From Lactococcus carnosus (GTDB taxonomy: Bacteria > Bacillota > Bacilli > Lactobacillales > Streptococcaceae), in assembly GCF_006770265.1 (NCBI RefSeq), contig NZ_CP017194.1:930001-994000 (forward strand): a DNA stretch of 64,000 nucleotides, read 5' to 3'. Shown piece by piece: positions 20,568-29,598 of this stretch. Within the stretch, counting starts at the first letter, position 1. Each line of letters starts with the position of its first letter. The translations under genes and the position numbers were made by a program. The notes beneath the pieces were generated by a model, which worked only from the letters and a program-made list of their open reading frames with translations, did not search any database and was not told the DNA's origin.

Positions 20568-22121
20568 TTGACAACCACTGATACGCAAGACATCCAGAAA
20601 ATCATCGTACTGGATTACGGTAGCCAATACAACCAACTAATCACACGACGCATTCGTGAATTTGGTGTTTTTTCTGAGCTGAAAAGCCATAAAATGACTC
20701 TCGATGAAATCAAGGCCTATGCCCCTAAAGCCATCATCATCTCTGGCGGCCCTAACTCTGTCTATGAAGCGGATGCTTTTGACATTGATCCAGGCGTTTT
20801 TGAGCTGGGTATTCCAGTCCTTGGTATTTGTTATGGCATGCAACTGATGACCCAAAAACTTGGTGGTAAAGTTGAAGCTAATCCAGGTAATGGAGAATTT
20901 GGCCCAACAAAAATCAGCCTAGATTCACCATCAAATCTGCTTGACGGCACACCTGTAGAGCAAACTGTCTTGATGAGTCACTCGGATAATGTCACAGCTC
21001 TTCCTAAAGGCTTTAAAATTGCCGCACATACGGATAAAACACCGATTGCTGCGATTGCAAATGATGAAAAAGGCCTTTACGGGGTACAATTTCACGCTGA
21101 AACAACCCTCAGTGAATATGGTCACGTGATTATTGAGAACTTTGTTAAAAAAATCGCTAAGGCATCTGGTACTTGGTCGATGGCTGGATTTGTAGAGCAA
21201 CAAATCAAAGAAATTCGTGAAAAAGTCGGGGATAAAAAAGTCTTGCTCGGCCTATCAGGTGGGGTTGACTCATCAGTTGTTGGCGTTTTGTTACAACGTG
21301 CGATTGGCGACCAATTAACCTCTATCTTTGTCGATCATGGCCTACTTCGTAAAGGTGAAGCAGAACAAGTGATGAAAGATTTAGGTGGTAAATTTGGCCT
21401 AAATATCGTCAAAGTGGACTGTAAAGACCGCTTTATGAGTAAACTTGCTGGCGTTGCTGATCCTGAGAAGAAACGTAAGATAATCGGTAACGAATTTATC
21501 GAAGTTTTTGATGATGAAGCGTCGAAACTTGATGGTGTTGACTTCCTTGCACAAGGCACACTGTATACAGATGTGATCGAGTCAGGAACGGACACTGCAC
21601 AAACAATCAAGAGCCATCATAACGTTGGTGGCCTACCAGAAGATATGCAGTTTGAACTGATTGAACCACTTAACAAATTGTTTAAGGACGAAGTCAGAGA
21701 ATTAGGTGAAGTCCTTGGCATGCCTCATGACCTTGTTTGGCGTCAGCCTTTTCCTGGTCCAGGTCTTGCTATCCGGATCATGGGGGAGATTACAGAACCA
21801 CGTCTTGAAAAAGTACGCGATTCTGACTTGATTCTTCGTGAAGAGATCGCTAAAGCTGGTTTAAACGAAAAAATCTGGCAATACTTCACAGTCGATACAG
21901 GCGTTAGCTCAGTCGGTGTAACAGGTGATTTCCGTAGCTATGATACAGTCATTGCCATTCGTGCCATCACATCGATTGATGGGATGACTGCTGACTTTGC
22001 TGAGATCGATTGGCAAGTTCTTTCAGAAGTATCACGTCGCATCACAAATGAAGTCAAAGGCGTTAACCGCGTCGTCTACGATATCACAGCTAAACCACCA
22101 GCTACGGTTGAGTGGGAATAA
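20568..22121 (+). CDS. guaA: GMP synthase (glutamine-hydrolysing)
   Basis: Makes GMP from XMP, glutamine and ATP. 517 residues: class I amidotransferase with catalytic Cys in GICYGMQLM (about residue 88) and [13 protein letters not shown]-pyrophosphatase loop [10 protein letters not shown] near 228; C-terminal dimerisation domain. Start is TTG at 20568, chosen because AAGGAG (20554-20559) lies eight bases ahead and the N-terminus fits. The last codons GAG TGG GAA TAA form the left attachment site of the integrated element, and the C-terminus remains intact. Confidence 0.96.
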
Positions 22122-22169
22122 CAGAAAAGAGCCTTATAACCTTTATTTTTAAGGGTTATGAGGCTCTTT
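22110..22169 (+). other. attL: left end of guaA-integrated element
   Basis: Imperfect direct repeat of 29259-29318. The shared core is GAGTGGGA(A/G)TAA, the last codons of guaA, followed by a diverged copy of the same terminator-like sequence (TTTATTTTTAAGGGTTAT in both). The pair brackets integrase, relaxase and coupling-protein genes, defining an element of about 7.15 kb. Confidence 0.85.
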
Positions 22170-22172
22170 TTT
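22127..22172 (+). terminator. Terminator after guaA at attL
   Basis: AGAGCCTTATAACC pairs with GGGTTATGAGGCTCT across an A/T-rich loop, followed by six Ts. Confidence 0.85.
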
Positions 22173-22204: not shown

Positions 22205-23295
22205 CTATTTTATAATTTTTATCCCACCAACCAATTGAGTAGTTTCTATATTATCACACCGCTTGTCTTGCCATTTGACTTTAATAAAATCATCTTGCCA
22301 AAATACATATAAATTCAATTTTTCATCTACAATTTCCACTACATTAGGATATTTCTCTCGACGATTTACTATTTTTGTATACTTATTTCGCCCTAAAATA
22401 GCATCACTAGCTAAAGCGATTAATATCTCATTAGATAAATCATCTCTATTTACTCTTATATATATCCTGTTTCCCCCTACAGCAGAAAATTCTTCGCCTT
22501 CTATTGCTAAATTCCAATTTTCAAAATCTACTTTTTTATATTTATAAAACTTAAACTTGTAAACTAACAATTTCAGGTAGAACTTTACATATGAAAATAC
22601 GTTATTTTTATTATTACTAAAAATAACCTTTCTCTCAATCATCATCATCTTTTTCGCAAGATAAATGACTGGTATATTTATAAGCCACACAAAGCCTTCA
22701 ATACCGAAATCTAGCCAAAAATTTATTGTTAAAACATCTCTGAAATTGTTAATAAATTGAATCATTGAACTAATAATCATAAATAAAGATATACTAATTA
22801 ATATAAAATTAAAAACTTTTGCCACTATTTTCGTATCTTCCTCTAACTCTGCAAATCCAATAATAATAATCAAAATTGTCAAAACCAACATAAGAATTAT
22901 CTCTCCAACTAACGGAAATGTGTAGGAAGAATTAATAAATAAAGGGATTGCTGCTAGCCCAAATAATTCTGTTTTCTTATCATGAAAAATCTCTTTAAAA
23001 CTTAGATTTTTTAAATGTTCCACAATCGGAAATACTGAAAAAAATAGAACAATCAAATAATCTTTTATATACCACAATGAAATTTGCAGGTTGTTTTTAT
23101 ACGAAAAATAGTATATTACTAACAAGTAACTCAAATTAATCATTATTATTACTAGCGCAATAGGATTTAACAAGAACTTTATTGTGTATTTAATAATATC
23201 CTTCAAAGAATCTAATAAATTTTTTTTCTTCCAAATATAATAACAACAAGTAAAACTACTACCCAAAATAAAATAGCTTGCTCTCTCGTACTCAA
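22205..23295 (-). pseudogene. IME cargo: multi-pass membrane protein with frameshift in an A8 tract
   Basis: Unrecognised membrane protein of about 365 residues, AT-rich, the last gene before attL. The best start is TTG at 23295: AAGGAG (minus strand, 23304-23309) is eight bases ahead, and this frame gives MSTREQAILFWVVVLLVVII, a good first membrane helix, but ends at 23212. The main frame (open to 22205) takes over at the A8 run 23220-23227; nine As would join them as ...FGRKKNLLDSLKD. Alternatively translation begins at TTG 23326 in the main frame, but that has no ribosome site. The main part has about seven helices to residue ~240, then a ~110-residue cytoplasmic domain with FSAVGGNRIYIRVNRDD and VEIVDEKLNLYVFWQDDFIKV. 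It resembles, from memory, uncharacterised membrane proteins common on mobile islands. Confidence 0.7.
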
Positions 23296-23359
23296 TAATT
23301 ATTCTCCTTCCCTTTAATTTCATCAAATTCTTTGAAGCTCAATCTTGTACACAAATTTC

Positions 23360-23623
23360 TCATTTCTTTCTATCTATCCCCAGAATCTTTACTTTTCTTT
23401 GTGTGAGTTCCAAGGAATCATAGCTTTCTCTACGCTTAACAAAATTATCATAATGATACTTAGCAACTTCATCTAGAGCTAGTTGAAATGCTCCGTACAA
23501 CGTCCCATATAAATCATTACCATCAGCATAAACTTCCATAACTTGTAGCTTATATTCTTGAAATTCTTCTGGCACACCATCACCAAAACGTTCAATTCTT
23601 ATTGTTACCTGATTTTCCCTCAT
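23360..23623 (-). CDS. IME cargo: 87-residue protein of unknown function
   Basis: Starts at 23623 with TAGGAGG eight bases ahead, so it is well translated. Soluble, acidic in its first half (IERFGDGVPEEFQEYKL) and basic at the end. No motif recognised. It lies between the 127-residue gene and the membrane protein on the same strand, within the module between integrase and attL. Confidence 0.65.
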   Translation of the reverse strand: MRENQVTIRIERFGDGVPEEFQEYKLQVMEVYADGNDLYGTLYGAFQLALDEVAKYHYDNFVKRRESYDSLELTQRKVKILGIDRKK

Positions 23624-23646
23624 TTAAATAACCTCCTAGCAACACT

Positions 23647-24030
23647 TTAACGACATTTTCTATTTACATACATTGTGATTAAATGTCGTTTCAAGTATAC
23701 CATATTAGGTAAAGTCAAACTGCTTGCTAACCATATATGATTTTCTATTTCCGCATGAAAGAATGCTATGAAATCGCCCTGTGTGCTTAATGGTAAATCC
23801 TCTAGCATACATTCAAATATAGGTCGTTTCTTTGCTGTATCTTCTATTACCAAAATATCATTTATATAAGCATAATTGAATCCAGTTTCTTTCATTTCCT
23901 CTATCCTTGAATATACCAAACTTTTCCTATTAAGTTTTTCTCGTACAAAAGTTGGTTTTAAGCCATTTAAATACAGAACACCAATTGAAAGCTCATTTAA
24001 AAATGCTATAGTATCAATATCAATATTCAT
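23647..24030 (-). CDS. IME cargo: 127-residue protein of unknown function
   Basis: ATG at 24030 overlaps the stop of the preceding gene in TAATG, implying translational coupling. No hydrophobic helix, no catalytic motif recognised; contains FVREKLNRKSLVYSRIEE, a helical charged stretch. Conserved pairing with the upstream 123-residue gene would support a two-protein function. Confidence 0.65.
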   Translation of the reverse strand: MNIDIDTIAFLNELSIGVLYLNGLKPTFVREKLNRKSLVYSRIEEMKETGFNYAYINDILVIEDTAKKRPIFECMLEDLPLSTQGDFIAFFHAEIENHIWLASSLTLPNMVYLKRHLITMYVNRKCR

Positions 24031-24401
24031 TATGCAAGCTCAATTTTTTCAGCACGATAATACATCGGGTTGCCTTGCATACTGCATTCTAGTTTTACGA
24101 ATTTTACTTTAACGGAATCTTTTTTCATTATATCGTCATTTGTCGTTAAAGCAGTCGGATTTAGTATTTTAATTTGTGTGCTTTTCTTTTTAAATTTTCC
24201 ATCCAAGATTGTAACAGAATAATTTTGACCTATAATTTTATCTGTAGCAAAATTTCTTGGTTTCCCTTCTCTGTCTTTGATAACTTCGCCATTTTCATCT
24301 GCTCTATGCTCTTGTTCAAAAACAGGCGTTACCTCATCTAACTCAAACAATGTCCCAATCGTATTAAAATCCCAATCTCTAACACTTAATAATTTTGCCA
24401 T
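24030..24401 (-). CDS. IME protein of 123 residues, possibly DUF961-like
   Basis: Begins two bases after the integrase stop and ends overlapping the next start, so it belongs to the integrase transcript. Beta-rich pattern: ...QNYSVTILDGKFKKKSTQIKI..., then VKVKFVKLECSMQGNPMYYRAEKIEL. The length and final strands recall DUF961/Orf23-like proteins of Tn916-type elements, but I see no decisive motif and the link is tentative. Confidence 0.65.
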   Translation of the reverse strand: MAKLLSVRDWDFNTIGTLFELDEVTPVFEQEHRADENGEVIKDREGKPRNFATDKIIGQNYSVTILDGKFKKKSTQIKILNPTALTTNDDIMKKDSVKVKFVKLECSMQGNPMYYRAEKIELA

Positions 24402-24403
24402 TT

Positions 24404-25591
24404 TTATTTTCCTTCTTTCTTGATATATTGGTTTCCACTAAATTTTTTTGTTTCTTTTATTGCTTTTTCATTCATTTCTACATTTATAAGCCCTACAAGC
24501 CTATTTGCGACCTCTATATTAGTATTTGGATATAGGTGCCCATATGTTCCTAAAGTTGTCTTGATGTCCTCATGACCTAGCCTGTCACGTACTACAATAG
24601 CATTTTCTCCCAATGATATTAATAATGAAGCATGGCTATGACGTAGAGCATGAGTTTTTACCCTATGAACGCCTGCAAGCTTCGAGTGTCTTTTAATAAT
24701 GTGATACGGTGCACTCTTATTTGTGGGTAATCCATTGTAAGAAAGAATCCATTTTGAACCTCCACATTTTTCTTGTGCTATTTTCCAATTTTTTAAATAG
24801 CTTATTGTATCACTATCTATTGCAATTACCCTATTACTTGCAGTTGTTTTAGGTTCAGTAATGTAATATTCTTCAGCATTTTTATAGTACATAGATTTAT
24901 TGACACGTAAGGTCTTATTCTCAAAATCAATGTCATTATCCCATTCTAATGCTTGAGCTTCACCAAAACGCAAACCTGTCATAAATAGTAGCCAGATAAG
25001 AATGAACGAATAGTTTTGGTAGTAATCCGAAGTATCAAAGGTAGCTATCACTTTTTCAAATTCAGATTGAGTCCAAAAATCAACTTTCTTTTTATTCTTT
25101 TTAACATTTCCCACTTGTTTTGCAACGTTTTTTTGTAATAAACCTAACTTCACAGCTAAATCTAAACTCATTTGAAACAATCCATAAATATTTCTAATAT
25201 AAGCACTAGAATATTTTTCAGATAATTCATTTTGCCACTTTTTTATCATTGGTGAATTAATTTCATTTAATTTTCTTTTGTAAAAATAGGCGAAATGAAT
25301 TCTCATAGAAGAAACTCGGTTATCATAGGTTCGCTTTTTAACAGAACGTTTATAGTCTGTTTCGAAATAAGTTGTATAGAATTCTTGATAACTCATTGAA
25401 CTATTTTTCTTAATAGCGGTTTTAGAATAATCATTCATGTAATCATCATAGGCAGATTTTGCTTCTTTTTGGGTTTGAAAACCACGTTCCCAATGTTGGA
25501 CTCGTTTGCCTTTTTCATCAAAACCTAAACTTGCTACAAAGTACCATTTTTTATTTTTTTTATCTTGATAAACATTTGCGATCTTAGGCAT
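24404..25591 (-). CDS. int: Tyrosine integrase of guaA-specific IME
   Basis: Site-specific recombinase that inserts and excises the element at the guaA 3' end. About 395 residues: AP2-like/SAM-like N-terminal DNA-binding part (KKNKKWYFVASLGFDEKGKR), core-binding domain, then the catalytic domain with Arg in TGLRFGEAQAL, HALRHSH, and the nucleophile in TYGHLYPN. The ATG at 25591 overlaps the DUF3173 stop by eight bases (ATGCCTAA); a TTG at 25612 is an alternative. The overlap with the DUF3173 gene is typical of such integrative elements. Confidence 0.92.
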   Translation of the reverse strand: MPKIANVYQDKKNKKWYFVASLGFDEKGKRVQHWERGFQTQKEAKSAYDDYMNDYSKTAIKKNSSMSYQEFYTTYFETDYKRSVKKRTYDNRVSSMRIHFAYFYKRKLNEINSPMIKKWQNELSEKYSSAYIRNIYGLFQMSLDLAVKLGLLQKNVAKQVGNVKKNKKKVDFWTQSEFEKVIATFDTSDYYQNYSFILIWLLFMTGLRFGEAQALEWDNDIDFENKTLRVNKSMYYKNAEEYYITEPKTTASNRVIAIDSDTISYLKNWKIAQEKCGGSKWILSYNGLPTNKSAPYHIIKRHSKLAGVHRVKTHALRHSHASLLISLGENAIVVRDRLGHEDIKTTLGTYGHLYPNTNIEVANRLVGLINVEMNEKAIKETKKFSGNQYIKKEGK

Positions 25592-25787
25592 GTATTTTTT
25601 CTTCAATTTCAAGATTTATTCCTAAAATTTCCTCAACTGCTGATACTGGAACTCTAGCCAATCTCTTAGAGCAATAATAAGCAAAACCTTTTTCAACCAT
25701 TAGACATTTGGCAAGTCTGATGATACTAGCAGATTGACTTGTTCCGTATCCAAGTTCTATCAAGTCATGTTTTGTTATTGTAACCAT
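25584..25787 (-). CDS. DUF3173 small protein (excisionase-like)
   Basis: 67 residues, starting MVTITKHDLIELGYGTSQSA and continuing with LMVEKGFAYYCSKRLARVPVSAVEEILG. This matches the DUF3173 pattern (helix-turn-helix-like, found immediately upstream of tyrosine integrases in streptococcal IMEs). Preceded by AAGGAGG. Probable role: directionality factor or integrase partner. Confidence 0.82.
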   Translation of the reverse strand: MVTITKHDLIELGYGTSQSASIIRLAKCLMVEKGFAYYCSKRLARVPVSAVEEILGINLEIEEKIHA

Positions 25788-25810
25788 AATTTCCTCCTTT
25801 AACCTAGTTG

Positions 25811-26749
25811 CTAATTTTCTTTTTCCTTTTTTGTTCTAGCGTGTACCGCTGATATTAAGTCAGTTCGTCCAATAGAAACTAAATGGGCTATCATTCTTTC
25901 AGCCAATCCACGAGAAAAGTCTTTTTTTTGAAATCTCAAATCATTTAAATTTCCTAATGCGTTGTTCTCTGATAAGAATACAAACGCCTGATATGTCGCT
26001 AATCCTCCTCGTTCCTCAAGCCAATTAGCACTACTTTGTAGTGTTGTAACTTCGTATTTTCTATTCAGATTAATAGGTGGTATTTTCAATAAAAACTTAT
26101 CCCAAAACCGACAAACTATTTTTTTTGAGCTATCTGTGTAAAAACGAAGTTCTTGACGAAGAACTGCCCGAATAAGATTTTCAAGTGATTCATTTTCATA
26201 AGCGATTCTTCTAGCCATATCATTAGCAGGTTCTCTTTTTAGTTCAATTTCAATTCTATTCCAACTACCAAAATCTGATATATCCTTTCCAGTCATTTTG
26301 GCTTGCTCAATAGCTTTATTGTAGATGCGACACATTAGATCACTTGTGCGAGAGCCTATATTTAAGGTTTTTCCTGTTGTAAGGCGGTATTTTGATTCGT
26401 TTATTGAATAATCACGACCATTTGACCAATAAAGATTTTTTTTTGCCTTACTAATCAACTTTTCCACTGTAAAATAGGGTAGTTCGTTTTTATCATCAAG
26501 AGCACAGTCTAACCGTAGAAATTCAACTTTTTCACAAATTCCAAAAGCGACTTGAAAGAATTCCTTCCAACTTAATGACTTACTCTCTAGGATTATTTCA
26601 AGTTGAGTACATGCTTGACCACTTAGCTGAATACAACAATCTGGTGTAAAAAGTGCATTGCGATAAGTGTATATGTGAATTAAACCATATGAGTAATAAG
26701 AATCGTAACCATAGAACATAAGTTGACCATCTGAAAGCTCACAGTCCAT
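25811..26749 (-). pseudogene. MobT-family relaxase, N-terminus missing
   Basis: Rep_trans/MobT-type relaxase related to Tn916 Orf20 and ICEBs1 NicK, which nick the element at oriT and start rolling-circle transfer. The first ATG gives 312 residues, but recognisable family sequence begins upstream of it: in the same frame, back to a TAA at 26831-26833, the DNA encodes QSKLDWIKIRLWEQ followed by PEIVINELFGIEL. No ATG, GTG or TTG lies in that stretch. MobT proteins are usually near 380-400 residues with an N-terminal helix-turn-helix, so that region appears deleted together with the end of the FtsK gene. CIQLSGQACTQLE and the YNKAIEQAK segment are typical of the family. Probably inactive unless started at a non-AUG codon. 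Confidence 0.75.
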
Positions 26750-26807
26750 AAGTTCAATGCCAAATAGTTCGTTAATTACTATTTCTGGCTGTTCCCATAG
26801 CCTAATT

Positions 26808-28133
26808 TTAATCCAATCTAGCTTGCTCTGTTACAGAGTCTATAAAAATATATCCTCCACCTTTAACTGTAATAGTTTTATACTCAACCTCGGTAGAACC
26901 AAATAGCATTTGTCTACCTTCTTGTGAAAGATTTGATAGCCCAACTCTTACTTGCAATTGGTCTCTAATTGCTCCGTCTAATACAGAAGTATCTGGTCTC
27001 TGTAATATGATTTCAGCAAAAACACCACATGCTCTACCTTTAAGAACAATATTGTAAATGTTTTTGGTTATTTCTTCTTTTATTTTTTTATCAACTGTTT
27101 TCATCAACGCTGCATACTCGTCAATGAAAATAACTACTGGAGGAATTCCTTCAAAATCAATGAAGGTTTTTCCGAAAGCAGAAGCATCTGTAAACATTTC
27201 CCTGTAACGACTTTCCACGAGTTCAGACGTTTCTCTAATCAACTTCGCAATTTCATTAGACTCAACTGCTACTTTCCCTTCAAATCCTGTAACAAAACGA
27301 TACAGAGATAAATCGGAAGCTTTAGGATCGCATATCCTTATATCAGCGCCACTCCAGGTAGGGGGACTATTTTGCACATCAGACATTTGGCTATATGAAA
27401 GCACCTTACTATTGATATAGAAACTTTTTCCTGAGCCCGTCCCACCAATTGTCAAGCCATGACTGACCTTGGAAACGTCATATGATAAAGAGTGTGTTAC
27501 GTTCACAACTGTCCCGTGAGCGGCTCTTGTATTTTGAGATATTTCAATCCGTTTATCTTTATGTTTCAAAAATGTGTAGTCTACGTAGTCAAAATTCGTT
27601 ATGGCTTTTTCCAGCTCTAAACCTAGCGCTGACTCAAAGTGACCTCCCAACTCATTACTTATCTTATTCCATTTATCGCCATTTCTTTGGACAGAAACAT
27701 ATATTTTTTTCTCGTCCTCTTTAAAAAATATAGGAATATACATGGTTACAATTCGTTTTCTTGAAGATTTTCCACTTAAATTAGTAAATTCGACATCTTT
27801 ATCCTCATATAGTGATAATGTATCAATTACATAACGTAAGTTCTGAGCAATAATAGGATTTTTACTTTTTCTATATTTAAAAAAGAGTTTGAAAACTAAA
27901 ATGTCACAATAAATTTGTAATGGTACTAAGATAATAAAAATATAGTCAAAATAAAAAATAACTCTAATTAGATTACCAAAAGATACTACGAATGAAGAAC
28001 TTAAAAATAGATAAATTAATAACAATATGAGTGGGAATAAAGATTTTTTTTTAGGGAAATCTACCAACGTCCATTCTGATTTGTTAAGAATGGGAATTCG
28101 GTTCTTTATATTATAGAAAAAATTTAGGAACAT
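26808..28133 (-). CDS. FtsK/TcpA-type coupling protein, C-terminus truncated
   Basis: DNA-pumping ATPase of the mobilization module (Tn916 Orf21-like), which delivers relaxosome DNA to the transfer channel. 441 residues: two N-terminal membrane helices, Walker A GGTGSGKSFY (near 230), Walker B VVIFIDEYAAL (near 345), and the sensor segment AEIILQRPDTSVLDGAIRDQL. It ends abruptly ...GGGYIFIDSVTEQARLD, where homologues usually run further, and its last codons overlap the open MobT frame. ATG at 28133 overlaps the previous stop (TAATG). Confidence 0.88.
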   Translation of the reverse strand: MFLNFFYNIKNRIPILNKSEWTLVDFPKKKSLFPLILLLIYLFLSSSFVVSFGNLIRVIFYFDYIFIILVPLQIYCDILVFKLFFKYRKSKNPIIAQNLRYVIDTLSLYEDKDVEFTNLSGKSSRKRIVTMYIPIFFKEDEKKIYVSVQRNGDKWNKISNELGGHFESALGLELEKAITNFDYVDYTFLKHKDKRIEISQNTRAAHGTVVNVTHSLSYDVSKVSHGLTIGGTGSGKSFYINSKVLSYSQMSDVQNSPPTWSGADIRICDPKASDLSLYRFVTGFEGKVAVESNEIAKLIRETSELVESRYREMFTDASAFGKTFIDFEGIPPVVIFIDEYAALMKTVDKKIKEEITKNIYNIVLKGRACGVFAEIILQRPDTSVLDGAIRDQLQVRVGLSNLSQEGRQMLFGSTEVEYKTITVKGGGYIFIDSVTEQARLD

Positions 28134-28934: not shown

Positions 28935-29141
28935 ATGGCTAATGCAAATGAAAAACAAATAGCTTTTTATATGACTAAAAGAAGTGCCGAGGAACTAGAT
29001 GAAATTCAAAAGATTTTTGCAGAACAAGAAGGACGTGTCACGAAGGCATATGTTTTAAACCAAGCAATTTATCATTATTATGAATATATTAAAGATTTTT
29101 ATGGACTCTCAGATGAAAATGATACAGAGGAGAAGAATTAG
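28935..29141 (+). CDS. Ribbon-helix-helix-type regulator of the IME
   Basis: 68 residues: a short basic N-terminus, KQIAFYMTKRSAEELDEIQK (strand plus helix), then VTKAYVLNQAIYHYYEYIKD (second helix). This strand-helix-helix pattern fits CopG/Arc-like repressors. It is the only element gene on the plus strand and is preceded by three repeated palindromic boxes and an extended -10, which fits autoregulation and control of the divergent mobilization operon. Strong ribosome site. Family assignment is from pattern only. Confidence 0.65.
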   Translation: MANANEKQIAFYMTKRSAEELDEIQKIFAEQEGRVTKAYVLNQAIYHYYEYIKDFYGLSDENDTEEKN

Positions 29142-29258: not shown

Positions 29259-29318
29259 GAGTGGGAGTAAAAGAAAAGAGCTTAGAATCCTTTATTTTTA
29301 AGGGTTATCTGCTCTTTT
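29259..29318 (+). other. attR: right end of guaA-integrated element
   Basis: Carries a remnant guaA end in frame (GCT GTG ACG GAG TGG GAG TAA) followed by AGAAAAGAGC and the TTTATTTTTAAGGGTTAT segment shared with attL. Its hairpin is degraded relative to that at attL, but the T run persists. Confidence 0.85.
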
Positions 29319-29598
29319 TTTTATTACAAATACAGTTAGTCGCAATTGATGATGAAAAATGTGTAGACCGAAAAACAAAGGCAACTTAAATTTTACAATA
29401 CAAAATGATACATTGAGAATGTAGATAATGATACAGCACTTAAGTAGGTGTTAATCTGATTGCTAATGTCACTGATTGTCTTTTGCATCTATTTAAAATT
29501 GCCTTTATTAATATCAAATAGTAAACAGATTCTTTGATTAAACATACCTATTTTGCGATAATGATTTTGAAGATAAAATTTATTAAATTTAGGAGAAA
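29319..29598. other. Intergenic region before ahpC
   Basis: No gene seen. Near the ahpC start there is GATAATGATTTTGAAGATAAAATTT (partly like Fur/PerR-type sites) with GATAAAAT as possible -10; too weak to call an operator. Confidence 0.4.

What the first reader, a model, noticed from the sequence alone, without database searches (positions are those of the whole stretch)
26780..26840. Out-of-frame junction joins truncated FtsK gene to headless MobT gene
The FtsK-type protein stops at ...VTEQARLD, while 12-22 bases upstream the MobT frame opens after a TAA with QSKLDWIKIR..., the normal start of its relaxase domain, without any start codon for 27 codons. A single deletion removing the coupling protein's tail and MobT's N-terminal helix-turn-helix explains both.
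Basis: partly seen in the sequence, partly recalled or inferred. Interest (0 to 1): 0.6.

Follow-up and report, generated by a model that had tools for sequence, protein, structure and literature searches.

The report
Broken chimera of two mobile elements
A small mobile DNA element next to the guaA gene of a lactococcus-like bacterium was stitched together from two different elements; the seam cut off the tail of its DNA-pump gene, the start of its DNA-nicking gene and the DNA site that is nicked, so it can probably still hop out of the chromosome but not transfer itself by mobilization.

Summary
On the minus strand the FtsK/TcpA-like gene stops at 26810-26808. The MobT/Rep_trans frame opens 23 nt earlier, at 26830, in the +1 frame, and has no ATG/GTG/TTG before codon 28 (26749). 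A sister element at the same guaA site in Lactococcus piscium DSM 6634 is 88.7% identical over window 23672-26824, and identity ends at the seam; beyond it that element carries a different FtsK. The window's FtsK half belongs to elements with an unrelated REP_ORF2-G2P relaxase. The seam therefore joins two element lineages, most simply by deletion between tandem elements or by illegitimate recombination. No HTH was lost: 20-plus relatives show short N-termini and no HTH. What was lost is the FtsK C-terminal tail, MobT's ribosome-binding site and first residues, and the oriT-like hairpin found between these genes in relatives. The attachment sites, integrase and excisionase look intact. Best reading: an integrated, possibly excisable, transfer-defective chimeric IME. 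No second copy of the seam was found. A more interesting by-product: several relatives seem to start MobT at AUU, AUA or AUC behind good Shine-Dalgarno sequences.

The parts
22110..22172 (+). attL: guaA 3' end and following hairpin
   Evidence: 63-nt direct repeat with 29259-29321, 79% identical; guaA ORF 20568-22121
22205..23326 (-). 373-aa putative membrane protein next to attL
   Evidence: 61% identical to the protein at the same place in the guaA element of G422; no Pfam or NCBIfam match; absent at this position in L. piscium DSM 6634
23647..24030 (-). 127-aa conserved element protein
   Evidence: 78% identical to G088; present in the DSM 6634 element
24030..24401 (-). 123-aa conserved element protein
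   Evidence: 79% identical to G088
24404..25612 (-). tyrosine integrase
   Evidence: PF00589 E 2.5e-24, Arm-DNA-bind_4; dN/dS 0.064 against DSM 6634
25584..25787 (-). excisionase-like protein (DUF3173)
   Evidence: PF11372 E 3.7e-25; proteins at the same place next to the relaxase are annotated 'excisionase' in plasmid records
25811..26830 (-). mobT relaxase frame without a start codon; Rol_Rep_N + Rep_trans
   Evidence: 92% identical to L. piscium DSM 6634
26747..26749 (-). first ATG in the mobT frame (codon 28), without a Shine-Dalgarno
   Evidence: duplex energy -2.5 kcal/mol, against -10 to -21 in relatives
26808..26833 (-). the seam: mobT frame opens (26830), DSM 6634 homology begins (26824), ftsK stops (26808)
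26808..28133 (-). FtsK/TcpA-like coupling ATPase gene, 3'-truncated
   Evidence: PF01580; nearest G079, 59-61% identical, continues for roughly 30 further residues
28133..28714 (-). two small ORFs (111 and 79 aa) upstream of ftsK
   Evidence: no Pfam match
28935..29141 (+). 68-aa divergently transcribed small protein, CopG/RHH-like by appearance only
   Evidence: 88% identical to the corresponding gene of the G422 guaA element; no Pfam match
29259..29321 (+). attR
   Evidence: direct repeat with attL, start-to-start 7149 bp

Best explanation
This is a 7.15-kb integrative and mobilizable element in the 3' end of guaA. A recombination joined the int-xis-mobT module of one guaA element (L. piscium DSM 6634 type) to the ftsK-regulator half of another element (G079/G422 type), most simply through tandem accretion at the shared attachment site followed by a short-homology deletion. 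Shown: the seam, the change of relatives across it, loss of FtsK's conserved tail, loss of MobT's start region and SD, and absence of the oriT-like hairpin. Inferred: MobT is not made as a working relaxase, the coupling protein is impaired, and there is no oriT to nick. The element can therefore at most excise and reintegrate with its own Int/Xis, or be moved passively by a larger element. The seam looks recent because the mobT frame is still open and shows no faster change in this lineage.
For: Window 23672-26824 matches the DSM 6634 element at 88.7% and stops at the seam; the FtsK there is a different protein, about 350 bp from mobT. FtsK's nearest relative (59-61%) aligns up to ...GYIFIDSVTEQ and then continues ...VYFETPFISKDFDFLDEIDKIYKKRLGIN; its element, and that of G422, carry REP_ORF2-G2P relaxases. 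An FDFI/L-type tail closes FtsK even at 28-31% identity. A hairpin with loop CTTGTAATAC (DSM 6634, G088) or TTGTCTAATAG (G033) lies upstream of mobT in relatives and is absent from the window element; published MOBT nic sites are CT'AA in the loop of a hairpin, and in ICESt3 oriT lies between orfK and the relaxase gene orfJ (PMC9371924, PMC6499999). No mobT-frame start candidate has an SD: -6.0 kcal/mol at best, against -10 to -21 in relatives. D5 and W6 are invariant and lie in the first strand of the catalytic domain in an AlphaFold2 model, pLDDT about 94; both would be lost from the first ATG. Polarised MobT changes: 8 window, 6 DSM, 14 unresolved.
Against: One genome only, and reads are not available. 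The true parents are not in the collections, so the tandem-deletion route is a guess. No stop or frameshift has accumulated in mobT, which would also fit continued expression by an unknown route. oriT was recognised by resemblance to published nic sites, not by assay.
Confidence: 0.82

Rival explanations
1. A simple internal deletion in one intact ancestral element removed the FtsK tail, the intergenic region and MobT's N-terminus with its HTH.
For: Both genes are cut at one point.
Against: Close MobT relatives have no HTH. No element was found that combines this FtsK type with this MobT type: MobT relatives have another FtsK or none near mobT, and FtsK relatives have another relaxase.
Confidence: 0.1
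2. The two genes are still expressed together: +1 frameshifting near the ftsK stop makes an FtsK-MobT fusion, or ribosomes ending ftsK reinitiate at AUU 26812 (overlapping the stop) or 26806.
For: The frames overlap by 23 nt; the mobT frame is open with dN/dS 0.146 against DSM 6634; relatives appear to use AUU, AUA or AUC starts.
Against: No frameshift signal was recognised. AUU 26812 and 26806 have weak SD pairing (-2.1 and -6.0 kcal/mol) and would drop D5 and W6. No relative has the arrangement.
Confidence: 0.04
3. Assembly or sequencing error.
For: Reads are unavailable and only one genome carries the seam.
Against: Single-contig genome with no second MobT or close FtsK copy to mis-join. 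The seam falls between two homology blocks, not inside one.
Confidence: 0.04

Closest known systems
MobT (Rep_trans, PF02486) IMEs of streptococci with a TcpA coupling protein, including guaA-targeting Tyr_3 integrases (Coluzzi et al. 2017, PMC5357655)
   Same: Tyrosine integrase, guaA 3'-end site, Rep_trans relaxase, FtsK-like coupling gene; exchange of modules and TcpA between IMEs is described there
   Different: Here the exchange point cut both genes and the oriT-like hairpin is missing
guaA element of Lactococcus piscium DSM 6634 (NZ_JXJW01000008.1; L039)
   Same: Same site; int, xis and mobT segment 88.7% identical at DNA level
   Different: Different FtsK, intact mobT start region with SD, nic-like hairpin present; lacks the 373-aa gene
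Elements of G079 and G422 (L048, L062), the latter at guaA
   Same: FtsK 59-61% (G079) and 41% (G422); 68-aa regulator 88% and int 75% (G422)
   Different: Relaxase is REP_ORF2-G2P, not MobT
RelSt3 / Orf20 / NicK MOBT relaxases of ICESt3, Tn916 and ICEBs1 (PMC6499999, PMC9371924)
   Same: Rep_trans catalytic domain; CT'AA nic in a hairpin loop, between coupling and relaxase genes in ICESt3
   Different: RelSt3 and Orf20 have an N-terminal HTH; this subclade has none. NCBIfam MobT model 78.6 bits against cut-off 600

Membership tests
Integrative and mobilizable element (IME) | integrase and attachment-site repeats at a specific site | tested here: met
   PF00589 integrase; 63-nt att repeats at guaA
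Integrative and mobilizable element (IME) | its own intact relaxase gene | tested here: not met
   no start codon or SD for mobT; catalytic domain otherwise intact
Integrative and mobilizable element (IME) | oriT | tested here: not met
   nic-like hairpin of relatives absent; a different oriT cannot be excluded
Integrative and mobilizable element (IME) | mobilization by a helper element | not testable with these tools
   needs mating
MobT/Rep_trans relaxase | PF02486 domain over its curated cut-off | tested here: met
   109.3 bits against 29.6; Foldseek 4cij E 5.3e-18 for the DSM 6634 homologue
MobT/Rep_trans relaxase | NCBIfam MobT equivalog cut-off (ICE-type MobT) | tested here: not met
   78.6 against 600 bits
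MobT/Rep_trans relaxase | N-terminal HTH (ICE-type MOBT) | tested here: not met
   absent in the window and in the IME-type relatives
TcpA/FtsK coupling protein | FtsK_SpoIIIE ATPase domain | tested here: met
   PF01580 39.8 bits against 24
TcpA/FtsK coupling protein | C-terminal tail shared by the relatives | tested here: not met
   ends roughly 30 residues early relative to G079

The most novel reading that the evidence does not exclude
Behind the missing start codon lies a wider rule: relaxase genes of the IME-type MobT subclade are repeatedly translated from AUU, AUA or AUC codons behind good Shine-Dalgarno sequences. Relaxase would then be kept scarce by initiation-factor-3 discrimination, and genome annotation cuts these proteins inside their catalytic domain.
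Probability: 0.45. Interest if true: 0.55.

Novelty: new member of a known kind. Interest (0 to 1): 0.3.

Why it matters
The seam is a clear molecular record of module exchange between two IME lineages, and it shows how an exchange can leave a resident element able to excise but not to mobilize itself. It also warns that annotation alone would list an FtsK plus a relaxase here and call the element mobilizable. If the AUU/AUA/AUC starts of the relatives are real, they point to a little-noticed translational brake on relaxases and to systematic mis-annotation of their N-termini.

Tried and rejected
HTH loss was rejected by relatives' N-termini. A single-element deletion was rejected as the simplest reading by the change of relatives at the seam. 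A programmed frameshift was considered: no recognised signal and no relative with the arrangement. A second copy of the seam was sought and not found: genus and family genomes, viral contigs, plasmids, phages. FtsK relatives were not found in viral contigs. Accelerated decay of mobT was not seen. The two small ORFs upstream of ftsK and the attL-side gene gave no Pfam match. An attempt to fold 272 bases of the DSM 6634 intergenic region failed on length; a 101-base piece worked. One alignment failed because of a stop codon in the chosen range, and one script returned nothing because of a wrong option and was rerun.

Full report
What is there. The window is part of a 2.16-Mb single-contig genome of the genus that includes Lactococcus piscium. 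L. piscium DSM 6634 appears in the same genus search as G400, and its contig of 94,844 bases is NZ_JXJW01000008.1. A 7.15-kb element sits in the 3' end of guaA between two 63-nt att repeats at 22110 and 29259. It encodes a tyrosine integrase, a DUF3173 excisionase-like protein, a Rep_trans relaxase frame, an FtsK-like ATPase and small proteins.

The seam. On the minus strand the FtsK ORF (28133-26808) ends ...VTEQARLD with TAA at 26810-26808. The MobT frame opens at 26830 after TAA 26833-26831, in the +1 frame, with no ATG/GTG/TTG until 26749. Rol_Rep_N matches from residue 2.

Relatives on the MobT side. The only hit in the named genome collection, L. piscium DSM 6634, has a MobT 92% identical. 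Its element is at the same guaA site and matches window 23672-26824 at 88.7%, ending at the seam. Upstream of its mobT there is an intergenic region of about 350 bp and an FtsK gene of another type. The next MobT relative, G088 (65%), again has another FtsK, 28% identical to the window's. G033 (43%) has no FtsK near mobT, but its integrase is 61% identical and it sits beside guaA.

Relatives on the FtsK side. The nearest FtsK is in G079 (59-61%). It follows the window protein to VTEQ and then continues PVYFETPFISKDFDFLDEIDKIYKKRLGIN. Distant FtsK relatives also end in an FDFI/L-type tail. G079 and G422 carry a REP_ORF2-G2P relaxase between ftsK and the excision/integration genes. G422 is a guaA element whose 68-aa regulator is 88% identical to that at 28935-29141.

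What the seam removed. First, the FtsK tail. Second, MobT's ribosome-binding site and first residues: start candidates in the window frame pair with the 16S 3' end at -0.8 to -6.0 kcal/mol, against -10 to -21 in relatives. The first ATG would omit D5 and W6, invariant in an eight-sequence alignment, and the first strand of the catalytic domain in an AlphaFold2 model of the DSM 6634 homologue (pLDDT about 94 there; PDB match 4cij). Third, the oriT-like hairpin: DSM 6634 and G088 share an identical 25-nt block with a GCCTG/CAGGC stem and loop CTTGTAATAC, and G033 has ACACAGTG-TTGTCTAATAG-CACTGTGT. None is present in the window element. Published work places the MOBT nic site, CT'AA, in a hairpin loop, and in ICESt3 oriT lies between orfK and the relaxase gene orfJ (PMC9371924, PMC6499999).

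No HTH was lost. Across more than 20 IME-type MobTs the residues before the domain number roughly 8-20 when counted from the SD-preceded start, with no HTH. An HTH-less Rep_trans relaxase next to a TcpA gene has been noted for an rpmG IME (PMC7563843).

Mechanism. Replacement of TcpA genes between IMEs is documented (PMC5357655), and tandem integration at one site is common (PMC5704250). The simplest route here is two guaA elements in tandem and a deletion from the FtsK tail of one to the MobT start of the other. At the seam both sides share only a few bases, which fits short-homology joining; the exact parents are not available. The seam appears recent: mobT stays open, dN/dS against DSM 6634 is 0.146, and its resolved changes are 8 in this lineage and 6 in the other. 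MobT and xis have lower dS than int and the 123-aa gene (0.30 and 0.29 against 0.63 and 0.86), which suggests further mosaicism.

By-product. The start codons of IME-type mobT genes are unusual. At normal distance behind a Shine-Dalgarno sequence they are ATG (one of two G022 copies, G011), GTG (G307) or TTG (G096, G230), but ATT in DSM 6634, G101 and G133, ATA in Enterococcus-type elements and in the other G022 copy, and ATC in two viral-collection contigs. In DSM 6634 the ATT has -15.1 kcal/mol against -3.4 for the upstream ATG. In two plasmid records the annotated CDS starts 54 nt inside the matched domain. A wider sample of Rep_trans proteins mostly shows ordinary starts upstream of the domain. 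This is suggestive, not proven: G133 has an internal stop, G033 and G379 show no clear start by this rule, and an AUU/AUA/AUC codon near an SD is not rare in A+T-rich DNA. A library search for AUU start codon together with relaxase found nothing.

Limits. One genome, no reads, and no mating or expression data. oriT is assigned by resemblance. The order of events is inferred.

Noticed in passing
L039 9974-9982 region; L010 and L007 (reverse strand); L086, L087, L096, L097, L137 (ATA); L088, L089 (ATC): IME-type mobT genes appear to start at ATT, ATA or ATC behind good Shine-Dalgarno sequences; no canonical start is available close by in L007, L087, L088 or L089.
   Followed up: partly
L096 4001-4055 and L097 3001-3055: The annotated relaxase CDS (WP_002322215.1, WP_330935594.1) begins 54 nt inside the domain matched by tblastn, so these annotations look N-terminally truncated.
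   Followed up: partly
L039 9853-9870; L049 7496-7513: A 25-nt block identical in DSM 6634 and G088, with a GCCTG/CAGGC stem and loop CTTGTAATAC, upstream of mobT: a likely nic site with GT'AA in place of the published CT'AA.
   Followed up: partly
L004, L006, L009 just upstream of the mobT Shine-Dalgarno: Conserved DNA CCTGCACG(T/A)TTT, apparently non-coding; role unknown.
   Followed up: no
L142 8540-9490 (G000:C1:350539-351489): A VirB4-like AAA_10 domain (225 bits) in a 338-aa open frame near an 811-aa ORF and a tyrosine-integrase-like ORF: possibly a decayed ICE in the same genome, relevant to whether a helper exists.
   Followed up: partly
window 23360-23672 and L039 13144-13309: The attL-side genes of the window element (87 and 373 aa) are missing in DSM 6634, where homology stops inside the 127-aa gene: a second mosaic boundary.
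   Followed up: partly
L007 / L084 (G133:C13): This mobT homologue has one in-frame TGA inside: another apparently broken relaxase gene in the family.
   Followed up: no
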